This document shows, in pieces, positions 391-9,919 of a stretch of 23,088 nucleotides of DNA; position 1 is the stretch's first letter, and every line of letters starts with the position of its first letter. The translations under genes were made by a program, and so were the position numbers. The notes beneath the pieces are model-generated. The model was not told where the DNA came from. It made no database searches and saw only the letters and a program-made list of their open reading frames with translations. The stretch comes from a virus. The DNA is taken from positions 1 through 23,088 of IMG/VR virus record IMGVR_UViG_3300028008_002565. One strand, 5' to 3'.

Positions 391-1449
391 TCAGGAGCGG
401 CGCAGCTTCGCCAGCAGCTCGTTGACTGGTGTCTTGATCTTTGCCAAGGGGCTGGACTTGTCGATCGCAGCAAACTTCTTCCTGGTGGCCAGGTGCGTGT
501 AGATCTTGGTCGAGTCGGCCTTGGCATGCCCCAGCAGTTCCTGGCGCACCAGCAGGTCGATGTCGTCTTCGGCCAGCTCGGTGCCGAACAGGTGGCGCAG
601 GGCATGGGGGTGGAGCTGCTTCTCATCGATGCCGGCCTTGCGGCCGTGCTTCTTCACGATCTCCCACACCGCCTTCGGCGCGAGCCGCCGGCGCTCCCCG
701 ATGTACAGGTGATCCGGCACCATCATGTTCATGAACGAGATGAACAGCACCCGGTCACCATCCGGCAGGTTGCGGTCGATGCCCTGGAGGTCAGGATGCT
801 CCAGATACAGCCGCAGCAGCATGTCGGCCTCTCTGGGCACGGGCACGAGGCGCTCCTTCTCGCCTTTTTCGAAGGTGCGGAGCATGTAGCGGGACTGGCC
901 GTCATATTCGGTGGCCATGAGCGCTGACTCATTGAGCCCGGCCACGCCGTCGCGGCGCAGGCCGCAGCCTGCCATGAGCGCCAAGATCGCGGCATCGCGC
1001 ACGCCCTGAAGCGTACTGAAGTCCGGTGCCCACATCAGCTTCTCTGCATTGGCCAAGGTCATCATCGAAGGGAGGCGCTTCCCCGCCTTGGGATAGTGCA
1101 GGGCCTCTGCGGGATCCTGGGCGATCACCTTGTGGTGCTTCGCCCATTCGTAGAACGCCTTGATCGCTGCGACGTACGGGCGCCGGCTATTGGCCTGGAC
1201 GCCCTGCTTATGGAGCCAAGCACCGGTGAACATTTCCAGCTGCTCCTCGGTGGCGGCGAGCAGGCCGTCCTGGCCGAGGAACTGTTCCAGGCGCGCCAGG
1301 TGGCGGCAGTACATATCGACGGTCTTGGCACCGCGCCCCTTGTTGAACCTGATGAAGCGCCGGAAGCGGGCAATTTGCTCGCTCTCAACCTTCTCCTCGG
1401 GGGTACCAGGGGCAGCGCAACTTGTGGAGCTGTGGATCGCTTGATTCAT
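391..1449 (-). CDS. Tyrosine recombinase / phage integrase (XerC/D-like, full length)
   Basis: This 352-aa protein has the two-domain layout of tyrosine recombinases. A SAM-like core-binding domain spans about residues 25-115 (ARFRRFIRFNKGRGAKTVDMY). A catalytic domain spans about 130-325. The catalytic set is visible: Arg165 in GCGLRRDG, Lys195 in the EKGEKER hairpin, His282 and Arg285 in HPHALRH, His308 in LLGHA and the nucleophile Tyr317 in KIYTHL. The family cuts and rejoins DNA through a 3'-phosphotyrosine, for integration/excision or for resolving dimers of circular replicons. The gene starts just beyond the first iteron-like repeat, so replication or repressor proteins binding there could affect its expression. 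The Shine-Dalgarno sequence is weak. Whether it is the phage integrase or a plasmid-type resolvase cannot be decided from the window. Confidence 0.9.
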   Translation of the reverse strand: MNQAIHSSTSCAAPGTPEEKVESEQIARFRRFIRFNKGRGAKTVDMYCRHLARLEQFLGQDGLLAATEEQLEMFTGAWLHKQGVQANSRRPYVAAIKAFYEWAKHHKVIAQDPAEALHYPKAGKRLPSMMTLANAEKLMWAPDFSTLQGVRDAAILALMAGCGLRRDGVAGLNESALMATEYDGQSRYMLRTFEKGEKERLVPVPREADMLLRLYLEHPDLQGIDRNLPDGDRVLFISFMNMMVPDHLYIGERRRLAPKAVWEIVKKHGRKAGIDEKQLHPHALRHLFGTELAEDDIDLLVRQELLGHAKADSTKIYTHLATRKKFAAIDKSSPLAKIKTPVNELLAKLRRS

Positions 1450-1490
1450 GATCTAACCAATTGATTTTAAAGAGTTTTATTTTCTATCCA

Positions 1491-1584
1491 ATCCACAGGT
1501 TAGGGGTGTTTCCACCTTCTAACCTGTGGAACTATTTTTTAAGCAACCGCATAACCTGTGGATTTTTGGCCTCAACCTGTGGAT
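1491..1584. repeat. Iteron group 1, four copies of AACCTGTGGA in both orientations
   Basis: ATCCACAGGTTA (1491-1502) is inverted relative to TAACCTGTGGAA (1520-1531), TAACCTGTGGAT (1552-1563) and CAACCTGTGGAT (1573-1584). The last two copies start exactly 21 bp apart, about two helical turns, which would put bound proteins on one face of the helix. A further copy of the same motif is at 1785-1796. The first copy lies about 40 bp upstream of the recombinase start. Confidence 0.65.
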
Positions 1585-1689
1585 GCCGCTCTCTGCGTTT
1601 TTTACCCTCTCTTCTCTCTTCTTCTTCTTTCTAATCAAAGAGATAGATAGAGATAGAGGAAGGCGTAAGGGGGAATAGCCGGTTTTCTG

Positions 1690-1741
1690 ACTTGTGGAAA
1701 AACAGGCATAACTTGTGGAAAAACGGCATCGACTTGTGGAT
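1690..1741. repeat. Iteron group 2, 21-bp direct repeats ACTTGTGGAAAAAC
   Basis: ACTTGTGGAAAAACAGGCAT begins at 1690. ACTTGTGGAAAAACGGCAT begins at 1711. A third, diverged copy ACTTGTGGATG begins at 1732. The period is 21 bp. The first two contain TGTGGAAAA (1693-1701 and 1714-1722), the reverse complement of TTTTCCACA, which fits the DnaA-box consensus TTWTNCACA. They can therefore be read as Rep iterons, DnaA boxes or both. Confidence 0.65.
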
Positions 1742-1773
1742 GTAGTTCTCTACAAAATCAAAGACTTAGCGAG

Positions 1774-1796
1774 TTTTCCACAGCAATCCACAGGTT
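1774..1796. promoter_or_regulatory. DnaA-box match next to an iteron copy
   Basis: TTTTCCACA (1774-1782) matches TTWTNCACA exactly. Two bases later AATCCACAGGTT (1785-1796) repeats the group 1 motif. It marks the right edge of the repeat cluster, about 40 bp from the end of the ASCH gene. Confidence 0.5.
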
Positions 1797-1836
1797 TTTT
1801 GCGCTGCCCCCATACCCCCCCCTTCATAGAAATTCG

Positions 1837-2394
1837 CTATTGCGGCCCCCTGGCTCTCTTCGTCGAGGTTTTCCCCGAGCCCGGCTCCTTGCTGAGGGGG
1901 AACGGGGGAACAGGCGAGGCGAATGGGTCCGGGCGGCCGATATCCTGATCAGCGGCCTGCGGCCGAGGGAGTCCTGGCCAGGCTGGAAGATGGGGCGACA
2001 CGCGCTGCAGGACCAGCTCCTCGGCGACATCGAAGAGGCCGAGCTTGCCGGGCATGGGAATGAACGGGAACGACGCTGGCCTGGCCAGCACGAAGCCATG
2101 CGGGCCGAAGAACCAGGGCGAGTTGCTCTCATCTACGCAGTCCACCATCTCTACGACGCCCACGAGCCCGCCTCGGCCGATCAGGTCCTCCGTAGGGATC
2201 ACGTGTACCAGATCGGGGCGCGCCTTCAGGATCGCCCTGTGGCCCTGATGGTCGTACTGTCCAGCGGCATGTATCAGCAGCGGCCCCCGGTGGTTGGCGC
2301 GCCAAGTCCGGTTCTCGATGCGCTTCGGGTGCGCGTAGTGTTCGGCGTTCAGGATGAGCCAGGCCCACGGCTGGCGGATGGATAAAGCCTTCAT
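1837..2394 (-). CDS. ASCH-domain protein
   Basis: This 185-aa protein opens with MKALSIRQPWAWLIL. The segment IENRTWRANHRGPLLIHAA at about residues 26-44 and GGLVGVVEMVDCV at about 75-87 are typical of the ASCH fold. ASCH domains are PUA-related and are thought to bind RNA or modified nucleic acids; some members act as RNA-linked amidohydrolases. The exact role here is unknown. The C-terminal 50 residues or so are Pro/Arg/Ser-rich and probably disordered. Its ATG overlaps the stop of the methylase gene (ATGA), so it is the last gene of the early operon. It ends 41 bp from the iteron cluster. Confidence 0.8.
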   Translation of the reverse strand: MKALSIRQPWAWLILNAEHYAHPKRIENRTWRANHRGPLLIHAAGQYDHQGHRAILKARPDLVHVIPTEDLIGRGGLVGVVEMVDCVDESNSPWFFGPHGFVLARPASFPFIPMPGKLGLFDVAEELVLQRVSPHLPAWPGLPRPQAADQDIGRPDPFASPVPPFPLSKEPGSGKTSTKRARGPQ

Positions 2395-3260
2395 TCGATT
2401 CCTAACAGTAAGGGTTGATGAGCCGCTTCATTCAGTGCATTTGCGGCCGCAGGATTGATCCAGACACACTCGGTTTTAACTTTTGTGCCGCGGCCGGCCG
2501 AGATCCGGGCTTTGGTCTGATGGAGCGTCCAGCCCGGTAGGCGCGCGTGATAGAGGTCTGTGTAGTACCCGGACAGCACCACCATGCCGCGCAACGAAGT
2601 GAGGATGGACAGCAGCTCAACGTGTGCAGCGTCATCCATCTCATGCCGGTAGGCTTGGATTTTTCCGTTCTTGATCCGAGGGACGCGGGTCTCAAACACG
2701 TACGGGGGATCTACGAAGTGCAGAGTTTCCGGACCGTCGTGCTGCACCATCACTTCTATCGCCGGCCGGTTCTCGATGAGCACCCCGCGCAGGCGCTCGC
2801 CTGCAGCCTCAATGGCGTCCGGATAAGCCGTCCAGTCGTGCTGTGCCGTGCCGTATGCGCGCTTCGTGTCGATCCTGAAGCCTGTCATGCCCTTCGTCGC
2901 GCCAGCAGAACCGAACCCCATCTGCGCGCGAATGCAAAGCCTTCGAGCGCGTTCAATGGGATCCTCGGACGGCGTCCACGCCTCGACGAATTCTTCGCGG
3001 GCATAGGGAGTCAGCCGCACGGCATCGACCAGCTGCGATCTGGTGATCGGGTCACGAAGGACGCGGAAAAGGTTCACGACATCACCATCGAGGTCGTTAT
3101 AGACCTCCGCATAGCAGCGCGGCTTCTGCAGCAATACCCCGGCCGCACCACCGAACGGTTCGACATAGCACGTATGCGGTGGGAAGAAGCTCTGAATCCA
3201 GCTGGATAGCCGGAACTTCGCCCCGTGATACCGGAGGGCCGGTCGGGTCACCTTGCTCAT
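2391..3260 (-). CDS. DNA adenine N6-methyltransferase (D12 class, Dam-like)
   Basis: The 289-aa product transfers a methyl group from S-adenosylmethionine to adenine N6. The N-terminus RYHGAKFRLSSWI is the family's opening motif. The SAM-binding motif I is EPFGGAAGVLL (FGGAAG at residues 36-41). The catalytic motif IV is FVDPPYVF, with DPPY at 184-187. The length is normal for the Dam/D12 family. The start overlaps the primase stop (ATGA) and the stop overlaps the ASCH start, so the three genes should be translated together. In phages such enzymes protect DNA from restriction or time replication and packaging. The target site is not deducible, although GATC is the usual one in this class. Confidence 0.93.
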   Translation of the reverse strand: MSKVTRPALRYHGAKFRLSSWIQSFFPPHTCYVEPFGGAAGVLLQKPRCYAEVYNDLDGDVVNLFRVLRDPITRSQLVDAVRLTPYAREEFVEAWTPSEDPIERARRLCIRAQMGFGSAGATKGMTGFRIDTKRAYGTAQHDWTAYPDAIEAAGERLRGVLIENRPAIEVMVQHDGPETLHFVDPPYVFETRVPRIKNGKIQAYRHEMDDAAHVELLSILTSLRGMVVLSGYYTDLYHARLPGWTLHQTKARISAGRGTKVKTECVWINPAAANALNEAAHQPLLLGIE

Positions 3261-6010
3261 GGCTTCTCGATCCGCGGGGCGGCATGCAGACCATAGCGCA
3301 GCAACCGATCCAGCGGGAGCACCTGAAGATTAGAGACCCGTCGGCCCAGGATGGTCCGTTCAGCAGTTCCGTCGATAATGCCGGCGTTCTCCATCTGCTT
3401 TTTGAAGACGCGATCTGACTTCACGGGCAGGCCGTTCCATTTTTCACGCAGTGCTGGGCTGGTAGATAGGTGATCCATGATGTGGCTTGTTCGGATCAAA
3501 AGAGCATCCCCGTCGTCAGGATTGATATCCCAACAGTAGGGGTATGAGAAACGACCGGCGGCGATTTCAGAGAGGGCAGTCTCCATGATCCAGACCCATG
3601 GCTCCCGGTCGGCGCTGGTCTCGCCGATGTGGCTGTTCATCTCGGTCAACAGGTCGCTATCGAATTCGCCCTGGGCGGTGTCAATGCCTGCAAAGTCGCA
3701 CAGGTAGATCCAGGCGAGGTACAGAGCGGCATAGTTGCCCGACATGCGGAGGGCACCGCTGTCCGATCCGCTGGCGATCGATGCGTCCAGGAAGGTCGCG
3801 CGCACCTCACGGTACTTTTCGAGCACCACCTTCTTCGGTAGCCGGGTGATGTATTCCAGCCATGCACGCACAGGGAATCGAGGCAGTTCGTCAGGGAGCA
3901 GGGGCCCCTTCTTACCGGTGAGGTCCGTACGGATGATCTTGCCCAGCAGCGATCGCACAGGGACATCCTCGCCGGCAAGCAGCACAGGTGCCGAGAGCAG
4001 GTATTCCGTCATCTCGGCCCCGCGGCGCGTCACCGTGTACTGATAGTTCTCCTGCAGCATGCCCACCGCCTTGTCGATGACTTCCTGCCGGCGGGCGGAG
4101 AGTTCCTCCCATCCGATCGGATGAGACGTGTGGCTGATTGAGGTCAACAACCGGAATTCCGTGGTCAGGGATTGGCCGGACAGCATGGTCATCCCGATGG
4201 CACGTTCCAGGCGCTTGATCAAAGTGGATTTGCCGCTGCCCTTATCGGACTGAATCATCATGTGTGGCCAGAAGCCCAGCAAAACCTTCAGGTGCGCGCC
4301 AAGGCCCCACACCAATGGGAAGAGGGCGGCATTGCTCTTGAAGGTCTCCTGGAAGGCCCCGATGACTTGACGAGCCTCTCGCTCACCTCCGGTCGGGAAA
4401 GTGAGGTTGTGGTACGGGCATTGCTTCTCGGGTTCCGTGAAATAGCAGTCCGGCCCCTCGTTGACGATGAGTTGGCCATCGCGCCAGGCCACCCCGACGA
4501 AGTTCGCCGCCTGCCGCGCGCCCAGGTCCGCGGTGCGCTCGAGGATGTTGACCATGCGCGAGAAGGCTCCGCTGTTCCAGACCGGGCCGAACTTTTTCCA
4601 GCCGTCGACGTTGTGGAGCTGCTCGTCCAACATGACGCGCCGCTGCAGCACTGGACCATGCCGCGGCGTCTGCACCGACACAGCGAAGTAGACCTGGGGC
4701 TGCTGGTCGGGATCTCCGGTCATGGTTGCGGTGGCGCTGGCCACAGAGACGCGGGAGATCGAGGCCACGCGGAAGCCCGCCAGATCCACCATGATCGGGG
4801 TCTTGATCATGCCGTCTTCGCCTTCCTTCTCCTCCATTTTGGCGATGTAGCTGGTGAAATCCTTCCGAACACGGAATTTCCAGTACTGCGCGAAATCATG
4901 CGCGGGCAGGTAGACGCGTTTGATGCCTGGTGTCCCGACCTCGCCCGACAGCCCAGGGATCAGCCAGTATTCGTGCTTATCGAGGGCCGCCCGCAGCTTC
5001 TCCGCGCCGAGCTCCTGCAGCATGTCGTTGACGTCGTTGATCGGTTCATCGTCCTCATCCTTCCAGTCGGCCTGGTCAACGAGCATCACGCCGATATTCA
5101 GGGCCACCAAGCGCTCCACGAGGCGCCACGCTGCCTCCGGCCCCTGTCGATGTCCGGCGAGCTTGTGGGGCGGTTCAAAGGGCTGATCGTTATCCAGGCA
5201 GAGCACTACCTGCTTACCGCGCAGGAAAGTCCAGTCTGCGTGGTCCACGTTGCCCAGGCCGCGAAGCGCGATGGCGAAAGCATGCTCGTCGGCAGTCTCG
5301 ATCGACAGGCAGTTGATCGCAGACTCGACGATGAAGACATTCCGGGCGTGCTTCAGGCGGCGCCAGTCGCTGCACCACAAGACGCCATCCTTCTCCCCCT
5401 GGGACTGCGTCTTCACGCCGCCATTGATATCGGGATCCAGGTAACGGAGGTCGACGGCACGTACCTGATCGGTGTGCTGGTCGCGGATGATGAAGGCTGC
5501 AGCAGGGCCGCCGTGGCCAACCTCTCCAGAGGGCCTCGAAGGAGAGACGTAGTTGTTGAAGCCCAGAGTCTTGCGACTGATGGCCTTGTCGATCACCTTA
5601 TCGGCAATGCCGCGGCTCGTGAGGTATTCACGCACCTGGGCTGCCTCGGCGACGCACTTGTCAGCGATGTGCTCCACGAGGCTTTTCTCGCGCGCCTCCT
5701 GGGTGTTCTGGACCCGGCGCTCGGTCGGGATCCCATATTGGTCATGAAGCCACCGCATGGCCTCGCTGACTTCCGTGATGCCGAGGACCCACATGACCAG
5801 GTCGACGCAGGAGCCGCGTGCGTGCGGCTGGCCTTCCGCACTGTAATCGCGGAAGCTCCGGCCATCCTTCGCAATGCCAATGGATGGTGATTTGTCCTCA
5901 TGGTGCGGGCTGTGGTAATTCGCGTTGCCGCCTTTCCCTCGCTTCAGGCCCAGCCTTTCTGCCAGGTCGTGAAGGTCAATGCGGTTCCGAAGTTCTTCGA
6001 TTGATGCCAT
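3257..6010 (-). CDS. Phage DNA primase-helicase (CHC2-like/Toprim/P-loop)
   Basis: This 917-aa replication protein has three parts. The N-terminal CHC2-like region (residues 1-95) keeps YHSPHHEDKSPS at 32-43, but the usual Cys of CPFH is Ser34 and only one later cysteine (Cys68) is seen, so zinc binding looks degenerate. A Toprim domain follows, with Glu229 in FIVESAIN and Asp273/Asp275 in CLDND; these bind metal for primer synthesis. The C-terminal half carries Walker A SDKGSGKST (Lys594) and GWEELSARR as a possible Walker B-like segment, giving an ATPase/helicase. It probably primes and unwinds DNA at the phage origin, perhaps the repeat cluster downstream. The start has only an A-rich leader and no clear Shine-Dalgarno sequence; it lies 5 bp after the previous stop. 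Confidence 0.9.
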   Translation of the reverse strand: MASIEELRNRIDLHDLAERLGLKRGKGGNANYHSPHHEDKSPSIGIAKDGRSFRDYSAEGQPHARGSCVDLVMWVLGITEVSEAMRWLHDQYGIPTERRVQNTQEAREKSLVEHIADKCVAEAAQVREYLTSRGIADKVIDKAISRKTLGFNNYVSPSRPSGEVGHGGPAAAFIIRDQHTDQVRAVDLRYLDPDINGGVKTQSQGEKDGVLWCSDWRRLKHARNVFIVESAINCLSIETADEHAFAIALRGLGNVDHADWTFLRGKQVVLCLDNDQPFEPPHKLAGHRQGPEAAWRLVERLVALNIGVMLVDQADWKDEDDEPINDVNDMLQELGAEKLRAALDKHEYWLIPGLSGEVGTPGIKRVYLPAHDFAQYWKFRVRKDFTSYIAKMEEKEGEDGMIKTPIMVDLAGFRVASISRVSVASATATMTGDPDQQPQVYFAVSVQTPRHGPVLQRRVMLDEQLHNVDGWKKFGPVWNSGAFSRMVNILERTADLGARQAANFVGVAWRDGQLIVNEGPDCYFTEPEKQCPYHNLTFPTGGEREARQVIGAFQETFKSNAALFPLVWGLGAHLKVLLGFWPHMMIQSDKGSGKSTLIKRLERAIGMTMLSGQSLTTEFRLLTSISHTSHPIGWEELSARRQEVIDKAVGMLQENYQYTVTRRGAEMTEYLLSAPVLLAGEDVPVRSLLGKIIRTDLTGKKGPLLPDELPRFPVRAWLEYITRLPKKVVLEKYREVRATFLDASIASGSDSGALRMSGNYAALYLAWIYLCDFAGIDTAQGEFDSDLLTEMNSHIGETSADREPWVWIMETALSEIAAGRFSYPYCWDINPDDGDALLIRTSHIMDHLSTSPALREKWNGLPVKSDRVFKKQMENAGIIDGTAERTILGRRVSNLQVLPLDRLLRYGLHAAPRIEKP

Positions 6011-8985: not shown

Positions 8986-9231
8986 TCAAACTCCAGAAAG
9001 AGGGCGCGCCCAGAGGCCACGCAGGTAGCGATACGACAAGAAAATGGCCAGCAGGAACATGCCCCACTGGTGCGAGGAAAAGGTCTCGATGAACCAGCAG
9101 GGCTGGCCAGCCAGGCCGATAAAGCACCCAAGGCGGCGGTTCTCTTCGCCACCACGGGTCATGTAGAGCACGGAGCCGGCGCTGGTGGCGAGGATCCAGC
9201 ACTGGACCAGCAGCCCGAGAAGGTCATTCAT
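8986..9231 (-). CDS. Small 81-aa membrane protein
   Basis: Starts at the ATG at 9231, overlapping the recombinase stop by eight bases. Two hydrophobic segments are visible: LLGLLVQCWILATSAGSVLY at about residues 4-23 and WGMFLLAIFLSYRYLRGLW at about 57-75, separated by a charged loop (TRGGEENRR). This suggests a two-pass inner-membrane protein with a basic C-terminus. A superinfection-exclusion or other membrane role is possible but not shown. The sequence is typical of uncharacterised phage proteins. Confidence 0.68.
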   Translation of the reverse strand: MNDLLGLLVQCWILATSAGSVLYMTRGGEENRRLGCFIGLAGQPCWFIETFSSHQWGMFLLAIFLSYRYLRGLWARPLSGV

Positions 9232-9895
9232 CGTTGTGTCTCCGATCGAAGCGGCGGCGCAGCTCGGCGCGGGTGATACGGTTGCCCTGATGGCGGTCCA
9301 GGTCGTCGAGGGTGTTCTCAACGTCCTCGCGCAGGACGCCGGTGTACACCCCGGTCGAGGCGATGGAGTTATGGCCGAGAGCAGCCTTGACGACGCCGCG
9401 TGGGTCAGCGGCCTTGCTTCGGCGCATGATGTCGATGGCGCGCGTATGGCGCAGCCAGTGCGGGCTGAACTTGTCAGTGAGGCCGGCGGCGATCGCCCAC
9501 TTCTTCAGGCGCAGCTCGATCGAGCGCACCGTCATCGGCCGGTCAGTGCTTTGACGGCTCACCAGGAGCGGTGCGGTCTTGGCAGGTCTCTCCTCACCGG
9601 TGATCAGCATCCGGATCTCCAGGAGGTCGCGCAGTGCCTTTGAGAGCCCCAAGGTGACGTACACGCTGTGATCGCGCTTGCCGCCCTTGCGGTTCTCTTT
9701 CGGGATGAAGTGGTACTTATCTGCCAGGGCCGCTTCAGCATCGCCCACCGTCATCAGGGCGAACTCCCCGACGCGCTCGGCGGAGAAGTAGAGGCCGCGA
9801 ATGATGGCGCTGTCGCGGCGGGCGTAGATGTCATTGGACTGTCCAGCAGCTTTGAAAAGCCGCTTTCGTTCTTCTGGTGTCAGGTATCGCAGCAT
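9224..9895 (-). CDS. Catalytic-domain-only tyrosine recombinase
   Basis: I choose the ATG at 9895, with GGAG six bases upstream; an alternative ATG at 9907 has no site. The 223-aa protein begins directly with the catalytic domain (MLRYLTPEERKRLF), so the core-binding domain of ordinary integrases is absent, as in FimB/FimE-type enzymes. The catalytic set is complete: Arg41 (AERVGEF), Lys70 or Lys73 (RKGGKRD), His146 and Arg149 (HWLRH), His175 (LGHNS) and Tyr184 (VYTGV). It may excise the prophage, invert a segment or need a partner protein for DNA binding. It is the second tyrosine recombinase in the window and sits in the early operon, so it should be expressed on induction. Confidence 0.85.
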   Translation of the reverse strand: MLRYLTPEERKRLFKAAGQSNDIYARRDSAIIRGLYFSAERVGEFALMTVGDAEAALADKYHFIPKENRKGGKRDHSVYVTLGLSKALRDLLEIRMLITGEERPAKTAPLLVSRQSTDRPMTVRSIELRLKKWAIAAGLTDKFSPHWLRHTRAIDIMRRSKAADPRGVVKAALGHNSIASTGVYTGVLREDVENTLDDLDRHQGNRITRAELRRRFDRRHNDE

Positions 9896-9919
9896 GTGGT
9901 TCTCCATGCGTATGAGTGG

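What the first reader, a model, noticed from the sequence alone, without database searches (positions are those of the whole stretch)
1485..1800. Iteron and DnaA-box cluster, probable phage or plasmid origin
Nine repeats with a TGTGGA/TCCACA core lie in about 305 bp of otherwise gene-free DNA. Start-to-start distances of exactly 21 bp are seen for 1552/1573 and for 1690/1711/1732. Three copies (1693-1701, 1714-1722, 1774-1782) fit the DnaA-box consensus TTWTNCACA. Iterons phased at two helical turns plus DnaA boxes are the standard layout of initiator-dependent theta origins. The adjacent primase-helicase fits this role.
Basis: partly seen in the sequence, partly recalled or inferred. Interest (0 to 1): 0.72.

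Follow-up and report, generated by a model that had tools for sequence, protein, structure and literature searches.

The report
Phage replication origin and its reader
A 390-base cluster of twelve short DNA repeats in a P2-like bacteriophage is almost certainly the place where the phage starts copying its DNA, and the phage's own primase-helicase appears to recognise it through a small tail domain that has changed in step with the repeats in dozens of related phages.

Summary
The repeats are real, and there are more of them than reported: twelve TCCAC-core sites at 1420-1795, two perfect IHF-consensus sites (the only two in 23 kb) and an easily melted centre. Simulated sequence never comes close to this density. 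The same layout, with site positions kept almost to the base, lies beside the same primase-helicase family (phrog_5629) in about 90 loci from P2-like phages, whatever integrase follows. It is also present in KS14, FLC5 and FLC10, which have no integrase, so it is not attP. Published att sites (KL3, AP3, KS5) lie on the other side of int. The site core drifts in concert per phage (TCCAC, GCCAC, GCCCC, TCCTC), so the 'DnaA boxes' are incidental. The drift tracks the primase-helicase C-terminal winged-helix domain: all five columns that perfectly separate GCCAC from GCCCC phages lie at residues 812-893 of 917. The N-terminal tree needs 8 class changes, the C-terminal tree 1. Best reading: a self-initiating origin of the SaPI-Rep/Cch2 type, used by a fused DnaG-type primase-helicase. 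Initiation itself is inferred, not shown. GC skew was inconclusive. I found no earlier description in the papers I could search.

The parts
1410..1800 (-). Whole iteron array (proposed origin), matched end to end by the family profile
   Evidence: nhmmer profile hit 1800-1410, E 2.2e-67; the seed alignment includes the window
1787..1795 (+). Iteron TCCACAGGT, outermost inverted site (primase side)
1777..1785 (+). Iteron TCCACAGCA (overlaps the DnaA-box look-alike TTTTCCACA 1774-1782)
1756..1768 (+). IHF consensus AATCAAAGACTTA
   Evidence: 83 of 96 arrays hold at least one perfect IHF consensus, 0.015 expected per array
1732..1740 (-). Iteron TCCACAAGT, first of the 21-bp-phased triplet
1711..1719 (-). 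Iteron TCCACAAGT, second of triplet
1690..1698 (-). Iteron TCCACAAGT, third of triplet
1600..1660 (.). Central pyrimidine/purine quasi-palindrome, proposed unwinding element; 1607-1657 is among the three most easily melted 50-bp stretches of the window
   Evidence: in KL3 and KS14 the single most meltable stretch of the genome is this spacer
1575..1583 (-). Iteron TCCACAGGT
1554..1562 (-). Iteron TCCACAGGT (21 bp from previous)
1531..1548 (-). Conserved A/T tract (GTTGCTTAAAAAATAGTT; CTGCCTATTTTTT in many relatives)
   Evidence: alignment; pattern
1522..1530 (-). Iteron TCCACAGGT
1511..1519 (+). Degenerate iteron TCCACCTTC
1492..1500 (+). Iteron TCCACAGGT, inverted
1454..1466 (-). IHF consensus AATCAATTGGTTA
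1428..1436 (-). Iteron TCCACAGCT (inside annotated 5' end of int-like ORF)
1420..1428 (-). Iteron TCCACAAGT, 8 bp from previous; conserved closely spaced pair
3257..6010 (-). Primase-helicase (phrog_5629): CHC2 zinc finger, TOPRIM, P-loop helicase, C-terminal winged helix; proposed initiator
3296..3595 (-). Codons 806-905: C-terminal winged-helix domain, proposed iteron reader (residues 840, 886, 893 co-vary with site class; wing = 882-899)
391..1449 (-). Tyrosine recombinase (int1) next to the array; not needed for the array and not next to the att site in close relatives
1837..3260 (-). Cargo between array and primase: ORF of unknown function (1837-2394) and D12 DNA methyltransferase (2391-3260); the methyltransferase is missing in L002/L003

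Best explanation
The array is the replication origin of a P2-like temperate phage, bound and opened by the phage's own primase-helicase. About a dozen iterons are held in fixed register around a melt-prone centre. They would be bound by the winged-helix domain at the C-terminus of the phrog_5629 protein, with specificity read mainly by its beta-wing (residues 886 and 893) and residue 840. IHF bends at two or three conserved sites would fold the flanks together, and the loaded hexamer would melt the central pyrimidine/purine tract. The fused DnaG-type primase would then prime synthesis. Shown by computation: the array, its family-wide conservation beside this gene, its independence from integrase and att, the concerted drift of the sites, the co-variation with the primase C-terminus, and the low duplex stability of the centre. 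Inferred: physical binding, IHF action, unwinding and initiation.
For: Array found beside the primase in about 90 related loci. A blind search of IMG/VR for the 21-bp triplets returned full-length arrays only where the primase is present, 19 of 19. Present in KS14, FLC5 and FLC10, which carry parA and no integrase; KS14 is a published plasmid prophage (PMC3091744). Att sites lie elsewhere: KL3 and KS5 (PMC3091744), AP3 (PMC5247547), and close relatives L001-L003, which end at a tRNA 3' end beside a serine recombinase. Concerted drift of site core (all twelve sites change A to C). Five perfectly class-separating columns, all at residues 812-893; none with random labels or pseudo-clades. Synonymous sites do not show it in the N-terminal part. 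Site class changes 8 times on the N-terminal tree and once on the C-terminal tree; one clade rejected, p-AU 2.6e-83. Residues 886/840/841/893 predict all four classes without error. C-terminus models as a winged helix resembling TcpK, which reads tandem 9-mers with its beta-wing (PMC6137059). Array centre among the three most meltable stretches in 15 of 16 genomes.
Against: GC-skew minima fall near the array in KL3, KS14 and FLC10 but not in most genomes (combined p 0.08). Three primase contigs (L023, L025, L026, all fragments) and Microcystis phage yong1 show no recognisable array. The primase 3' end and the array are physically close in most phages, so part of the co-variation could be linkage; synonymous separation is mildly raised in the C-terminus (0.20 against about 0.12). 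The winged-helix match is weak by E-value (0.066, probability 0.99). KS14 and FLC10 also carry a RepB gene. No binding or replication data exist.
Confidence: 0.85

Rival explanations
1. The array is the phage attachment site (attP): arm-type sites of the adjacent tyrosine recombinase with IHF sites around a core in the central palindrome.
For: Direct repeats plus IHF sites beside an integrase-like gene, with a palindromic centre, look like a lambda-type attP.
Against: Array intact in prophages; att sites of KL3, KS5 and AP3 mapped to the 3' side of int; relatives of the window end at a tRNA beside a serine recombinase; array kept beside unrelated integrases and in phages with none.
Confidence: 0.03
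2. The array is bound by the primase-helicase but is a copy-control or incompatibility element, like P4 crr, and DNA synthesis starts elsewhere.
For: P4 needs crr as well as ori (own knowledge). GC skew does not mark the array consistently.
Against: Only one array locus found in most genomes; the melt-prone stretch lies inside it.
Confidence: 0.08
3. DnaA-dependent origin with host DnaA boxes.
For: Three perfect TTWTNCACA matches inside the array.
Against: DnaA-box forms are absent from most arrays, which keep the layout with cores such as GCCCC or TCCTC.
Confidence: 0.02
4. Partition site (parS-like) of plasmid prophages.
For: In KS14, FLC5 and FLC10 the array lies 350-450 bp from parA.
Against: parA is missing near the array in the integrating phages examined, which keep the array; site specificity tracks the primase.
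Confidence: 0.02

Closest known systems
SaPI Rep helicase and SCCmec Cch2 with their iteron origins (PMC7581432)
   Same: Element-encoded initiator helicase, iteron origin just downstream of its own gene, origin read by the C-terminal domain; the fold search of the full model hits the SCCmec helicase Cch (E 5e-4).
   Different: Here helicase and a DnaG-type (CHC2 + TOPRIM) primase are one protein, the origin has about twelve iterons plus IHF sites in a fixed layout, and the carrier is a P2-like phage of Burkholderiales.
Bacteriophage P4 alpha primase-helicase with ori and crr (own knowledge)
   Same: Fused primase, helicase and C-terminal winged-helix origin binder.
   Different: No D5_N or P4-type primase zinc-ribbon Pfam match, different iteron, one array rather than two separated elements.
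Iteron plasmid origins with IHF and DnaA boxes (RK2, R6K, pSC101; own knowledge)
   Same: Phased 21-22 bp repeats, IHF sites, melt-prone region.
   Different: No conserved DnaA boxes; the proposed initiator is a primase-helicase, not a RepA/Pi-type protein.
TcpK of plasmid pCW3 at oriT (PMC6137059)
   Same: Winged helix on tandem 9-bp boxes with specificity in the beta-wing; best plausible fold match of the C-terminal model.
   Different: Stand-alone relaxosome protein in conjugation, not a replication protein.

Membership tests
Self-initiating helicase origin (SaPI Rep / Cch2 kind) | Iteron array just downstream of the helicase gene | tested here: met
   3' of the primase-helicase in most loci; in the window two cargo genes intervene; in KS14/FLC5/FLC10 the array is about 2.5-2.9 kb away
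Self-initiating helicase origin (SaPI Rep / Cch2 kind) | C-terminal domain of the helicase reads the iterons | tested here: inconclusive
   Strong co-variation and winged-helix model, no binding data
Self-initiating helicase origin (SaPI Rep / Cch2 kind) | MCM-like/Cch-type helicase core | tested here: inconclusive
   Foldseek hit to Cch 5dgk (E 5e-4) from a model of pTM 0.50
Self-initiating helicase origin (SaPI Rep / Cch2 kind) | Origin activity in vivo | not testable with these tools
   needs a replication assay
P4 alpha / ori-crr | Fused primase and helicase | tested here: met
   CHC2/TOPRIM and P-loop region in one 917-aa protein
P4 alpha / ori-crr | P4-type domain set (Prim_Zn_Ribbon, D5_N) | tested here: not met
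   no such Pfam match at E up to 5
P4 alpha / ori-crr | Two separate iteron elements | tested here: inconclusive
   one profile hit per genome in 13 of 16 genomes; a second profile hit in 3 was not examined
DnaA-box iteron origin | Conserved DnaA boxes | tested here: not met
   TTWTNCACA in 7 of 86 arrays, TTATCCACA in none
DnaA-box iteron origin | Phased iterons and melt-prone region | tested here: met
   21-bp triplet, central melt-prone spacer
Lambda-type attP | Prophage junction within the array | tested here: not met
   array intact in prophages; att elsewhere

The most novel reading that the evidence does not exclude
The primase-helicase C-terminal wing and the iteron array form an exchangeable origin-specificity cassette with a simple wing-to-base code (886 T or R with first base T or G; 893 small, R or Q with fourth base A, C or T). 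Phages would switch it under selection, for example to keep co-resident phages or satellites from using each other's replication machinery.
Probability: 0.35. Interest if true: 0.65.

Novelty: new variant of a known kind. Interest (0 to 1): 0.52.

Why it matters
P2 itself replicates by rolling circle with gpA (own knowledge). Many P2-like phages of Burkholderiales have no gpA match (PMC3091744) and carry this primase-helicase instead, with no described origin that I could find. This locates the likely origin in a whole group of phages, including isolates KL3, KS5, KS14, AP3, Mana, FLC5 and FLC10, names the protein and residues likely to read it, and gives natural specificity variants that make a direct binding and swap experiment possible. 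It also shows that an integrase-adjacent repeat array with IHF sites need not be attP, and that DnaA-box matches in one genome can be a side effect of a phage iteron.

Tried and rejected
attP (rejected: integrase-less phages keep the array and mapped att sites lie elsewhere). DnaA boxes (rejected as a defining part). GC skew as origin marker (inconclusive: near the array in 3 of 16 genomes, combined p 0.08). A RepB initiator as general binder (only in KS14 and FLC10). Sequence search of the C-terminal domain in the PDB (only an implausible Cas2 hit, E 0.14). Pfam on the C-terminal domain (none). Satellites carrying the array without the primase (none convincing; L166 and L192 have weak partial hits only). 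phrog_5629 search of 369 genomes of the Polaromonas class (few full-length members). The first-base covariation with residue 886 follows clades, so alone it proves little. The independent-pairs test had too few pairs for significance (3 of 3 in agreement).

Full report
OBSERVATION. The window is a 23,088-base virus record with the gene content of a P2-like temperate phage. Between a tyrosine-recombinase ORF (391-1449, minus) and a cargo ORF (1837-2394, minus) lie the reported repeats. All reported coordinates hold. All nine perfect TCCACARGT copies of the window lie in 1420-1795. Including imperfect copies there are twelve TCCAC-core sites, at 1420, 1428, 1492, 1511, 1522, 1554, 1575, 1690, 1711, 1732, 1777 and 1787. 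Eleven TCCACA cores fall in 380 bp; the maximum in 300 simulated windows was 4. The only two perfect IHF consensus sites of the window flank the array's two ends (1454-1466, 1756-1768). Four of the eight most easily melted 50-bp stretches of the window lie in or at the edge of the array, one being the central pyrimidine/purine tract.

FAMILY. The primase-helicase (3257-6010, phrog_5629 at E = 0) has relatives in 128 viral stretches (80 kept) and in 20 phage records, 19 of them Burkholderia phages including KL3, KS5, KS14, AP3, Mana and FLC5. I aligned the DNA 3' of the primase in diverged relatives and built a profile. It finds the array in nearly all loci long enough to hold it, from 98% identical down to about 47% identical primases. 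The register is kept almost to the base: for example the sites starting at 82, 103, 218, 239, 271, 305, 365 and 373 of the window array correspond to 82, 103, 219, 240, 272, 306, 367 and 375 in L030. IHF consensus sites are kept while the sequence drifts: 83 of 96 arrays have at least one and 46 have two or more, against 0.015 expected (the arrays are related, so this is descriptive). A search of IMG/VR for the 21-bp-phased triplets alone, blind to genes, returned 44 + 6 stretches; every full-length array among them (19 of 19) lies beside this primase, and the other triplets are unrelated repeats or weak partial hits.

NOT attP. KS14, FLC5 and FLC10 carry the array (KS14 29652-30019; FLC5 221-588) next to parA and have no integrase annotated; KS14 is a published plasmid prophage (PMC3091744). 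KL3 joins the host at bases 1-45 of its record, KS5 at its base 1, and AP3 within the 3' end of its integrase (PMC3091744, PMC5247547), all on the far side of int from the array. In the window's closest relatives (L001-L003) the record ends at a tRNA 3' end beside a 521-522-residue serine recombinase, 2.4-3.0 kb from int1, with the array intact. In Polaromonas L016 the analogous serine recombinase runs into a tRNA-Asn gene. The array therefore tracks the primase, not an integrase.

WHAT READS IT. Within each phage all sites share one core, but the core differs between phages: TCCAC, GCCAC, GCCCC or TCCTC. Comparing GCCAC with GCCCC arrays, the class-separating columns fall on the fourth base of all twelve sites, with some linked flanking changes, while the central tract, the IHF site and the CTGCCTATTTTTT motif are shared. 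In the 917-residue primase-helicase, the only columns that perfectly separate the two classes are 812, 816, 818, 840 and 893. Random labels and N-terminal pseudo-clades of equal size give none. On a tree of residues 1-760 the site class changes 8 times and a single GCCCC clade is rejected (p-AU 2.6e-83); on the C-terminal tree it changes once. Synonymous sites show no class separation in the N-terminal 800 codons and only a mild rise in the C-terminus (0.20 against about 0.12), so linkage explains a part at most. Over all four classes the residues 886/840/841/893 predict the site core without error. Arg at 886 goes with G at base 1; Arg, Gln or a small residue at 893 go with C, T or A at base 4, which fits common Arg-G and Gln-A contacts on the complementary strand (inference).

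STRUCTURE. AlphaFold2 of the C-terminal 152 residues gives pLDDT 86-92 over most of the core and a helix-helix-helix plus beta-wing arrangement; residues 886 and 893 sit on the wing. The best plausible PDB matches are TcpK of pCW3 (probability 0.99, E 0.066), a winged helix that reads tandem 9-mers through its beta-wing (PMC6137059). The full-length model (pTM 0.50, so weak) matches DnaG primases and the SCCmec helicase Cch.

MECHANISM. The closest worked-out systems are SaPI Rep and SCCmec Cch2, initiator helicases that bind iterons just downstream of their own genes with their C-terminal domain (PMC7581432). By analogy the phage protein would bind the iterons, with IHF folding the flanks, melt the central tract and prime synthesis with its fused primase. 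In KL3, KS14, FLC5, FLC10, Mana and L091 the most easily melted 50 bp of the record is the array centre, and it ranks in the top three in 15 of 16 genomes. Cumulative GC skew is not a consistent marker. Binding, melting and initiation are not shown.

EXCEPTIONS AND LIMITS. L023, L025 and L026 have a 71-75% identical primase and no array in the sequence held, but all are fragments. Microcystis phage yong1 (53% primase) has no recognisable array. Three genomes gave a second profile hit that I did not examine. The profile seed included the window, so its own score is not independent; the blind pattern search is. I searched open-access papers only and found no description of this origin; a subscription paper may exist.

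NOVELTY. A self-initiating iteron origin is a known kind. Its use by a fused DnaG-type primase-helicase in P2-like phages, the fixed twelve-site plus IHF layout, and the wing-linked specificity cassette make this a new variant.

Noticed in passing
window 391-1449 and 9224-9907; L001-L003 from 7862 (L002 from 8504) to the end: The phage carries two tyrosine recombinases (352 and 227 aa), and close relatives have a 521-522 aa serine recombinase at the tRNA-bordered prophage end, which is the likelier integrase. The job of the two tyrosine recombinases is unknown.
   Followed up: partly
window 2391-3260: A D12-class DNA methyltransferase lies between primase and array in the window and L001 but is absent from the near-identical L002 and L003; recent cargo.
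   Followed up: no
L101 1809-2420 (AP3 gp50) and L097 7162-7848 (Mana 046): Annotated proteins ('baseplate J', 'membrane protein') overlap the array in AP3 and Mana; these ORF calls are probably spurious.
   Followed up: partly
L016 4685-7284: In Polaromonas sp. P2-4 the primase is broken by frameshifts and stops while the array beside it is still well preserved; a decaying prophage.
   Followed up: no
KS14 27740-28495 (L128); FLC10 (L138 1123-1878): KS14 and FLC10 carry an additional RepB-type initiator gene that FLC5 lacks; they may have a second, plasmid-stage origin.
   Followed up: partly
L023, L025, L026: Primases 71-75% identical to the window's, with no array found in the sequence held; fragments, unexplained.
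   Followed up: partly
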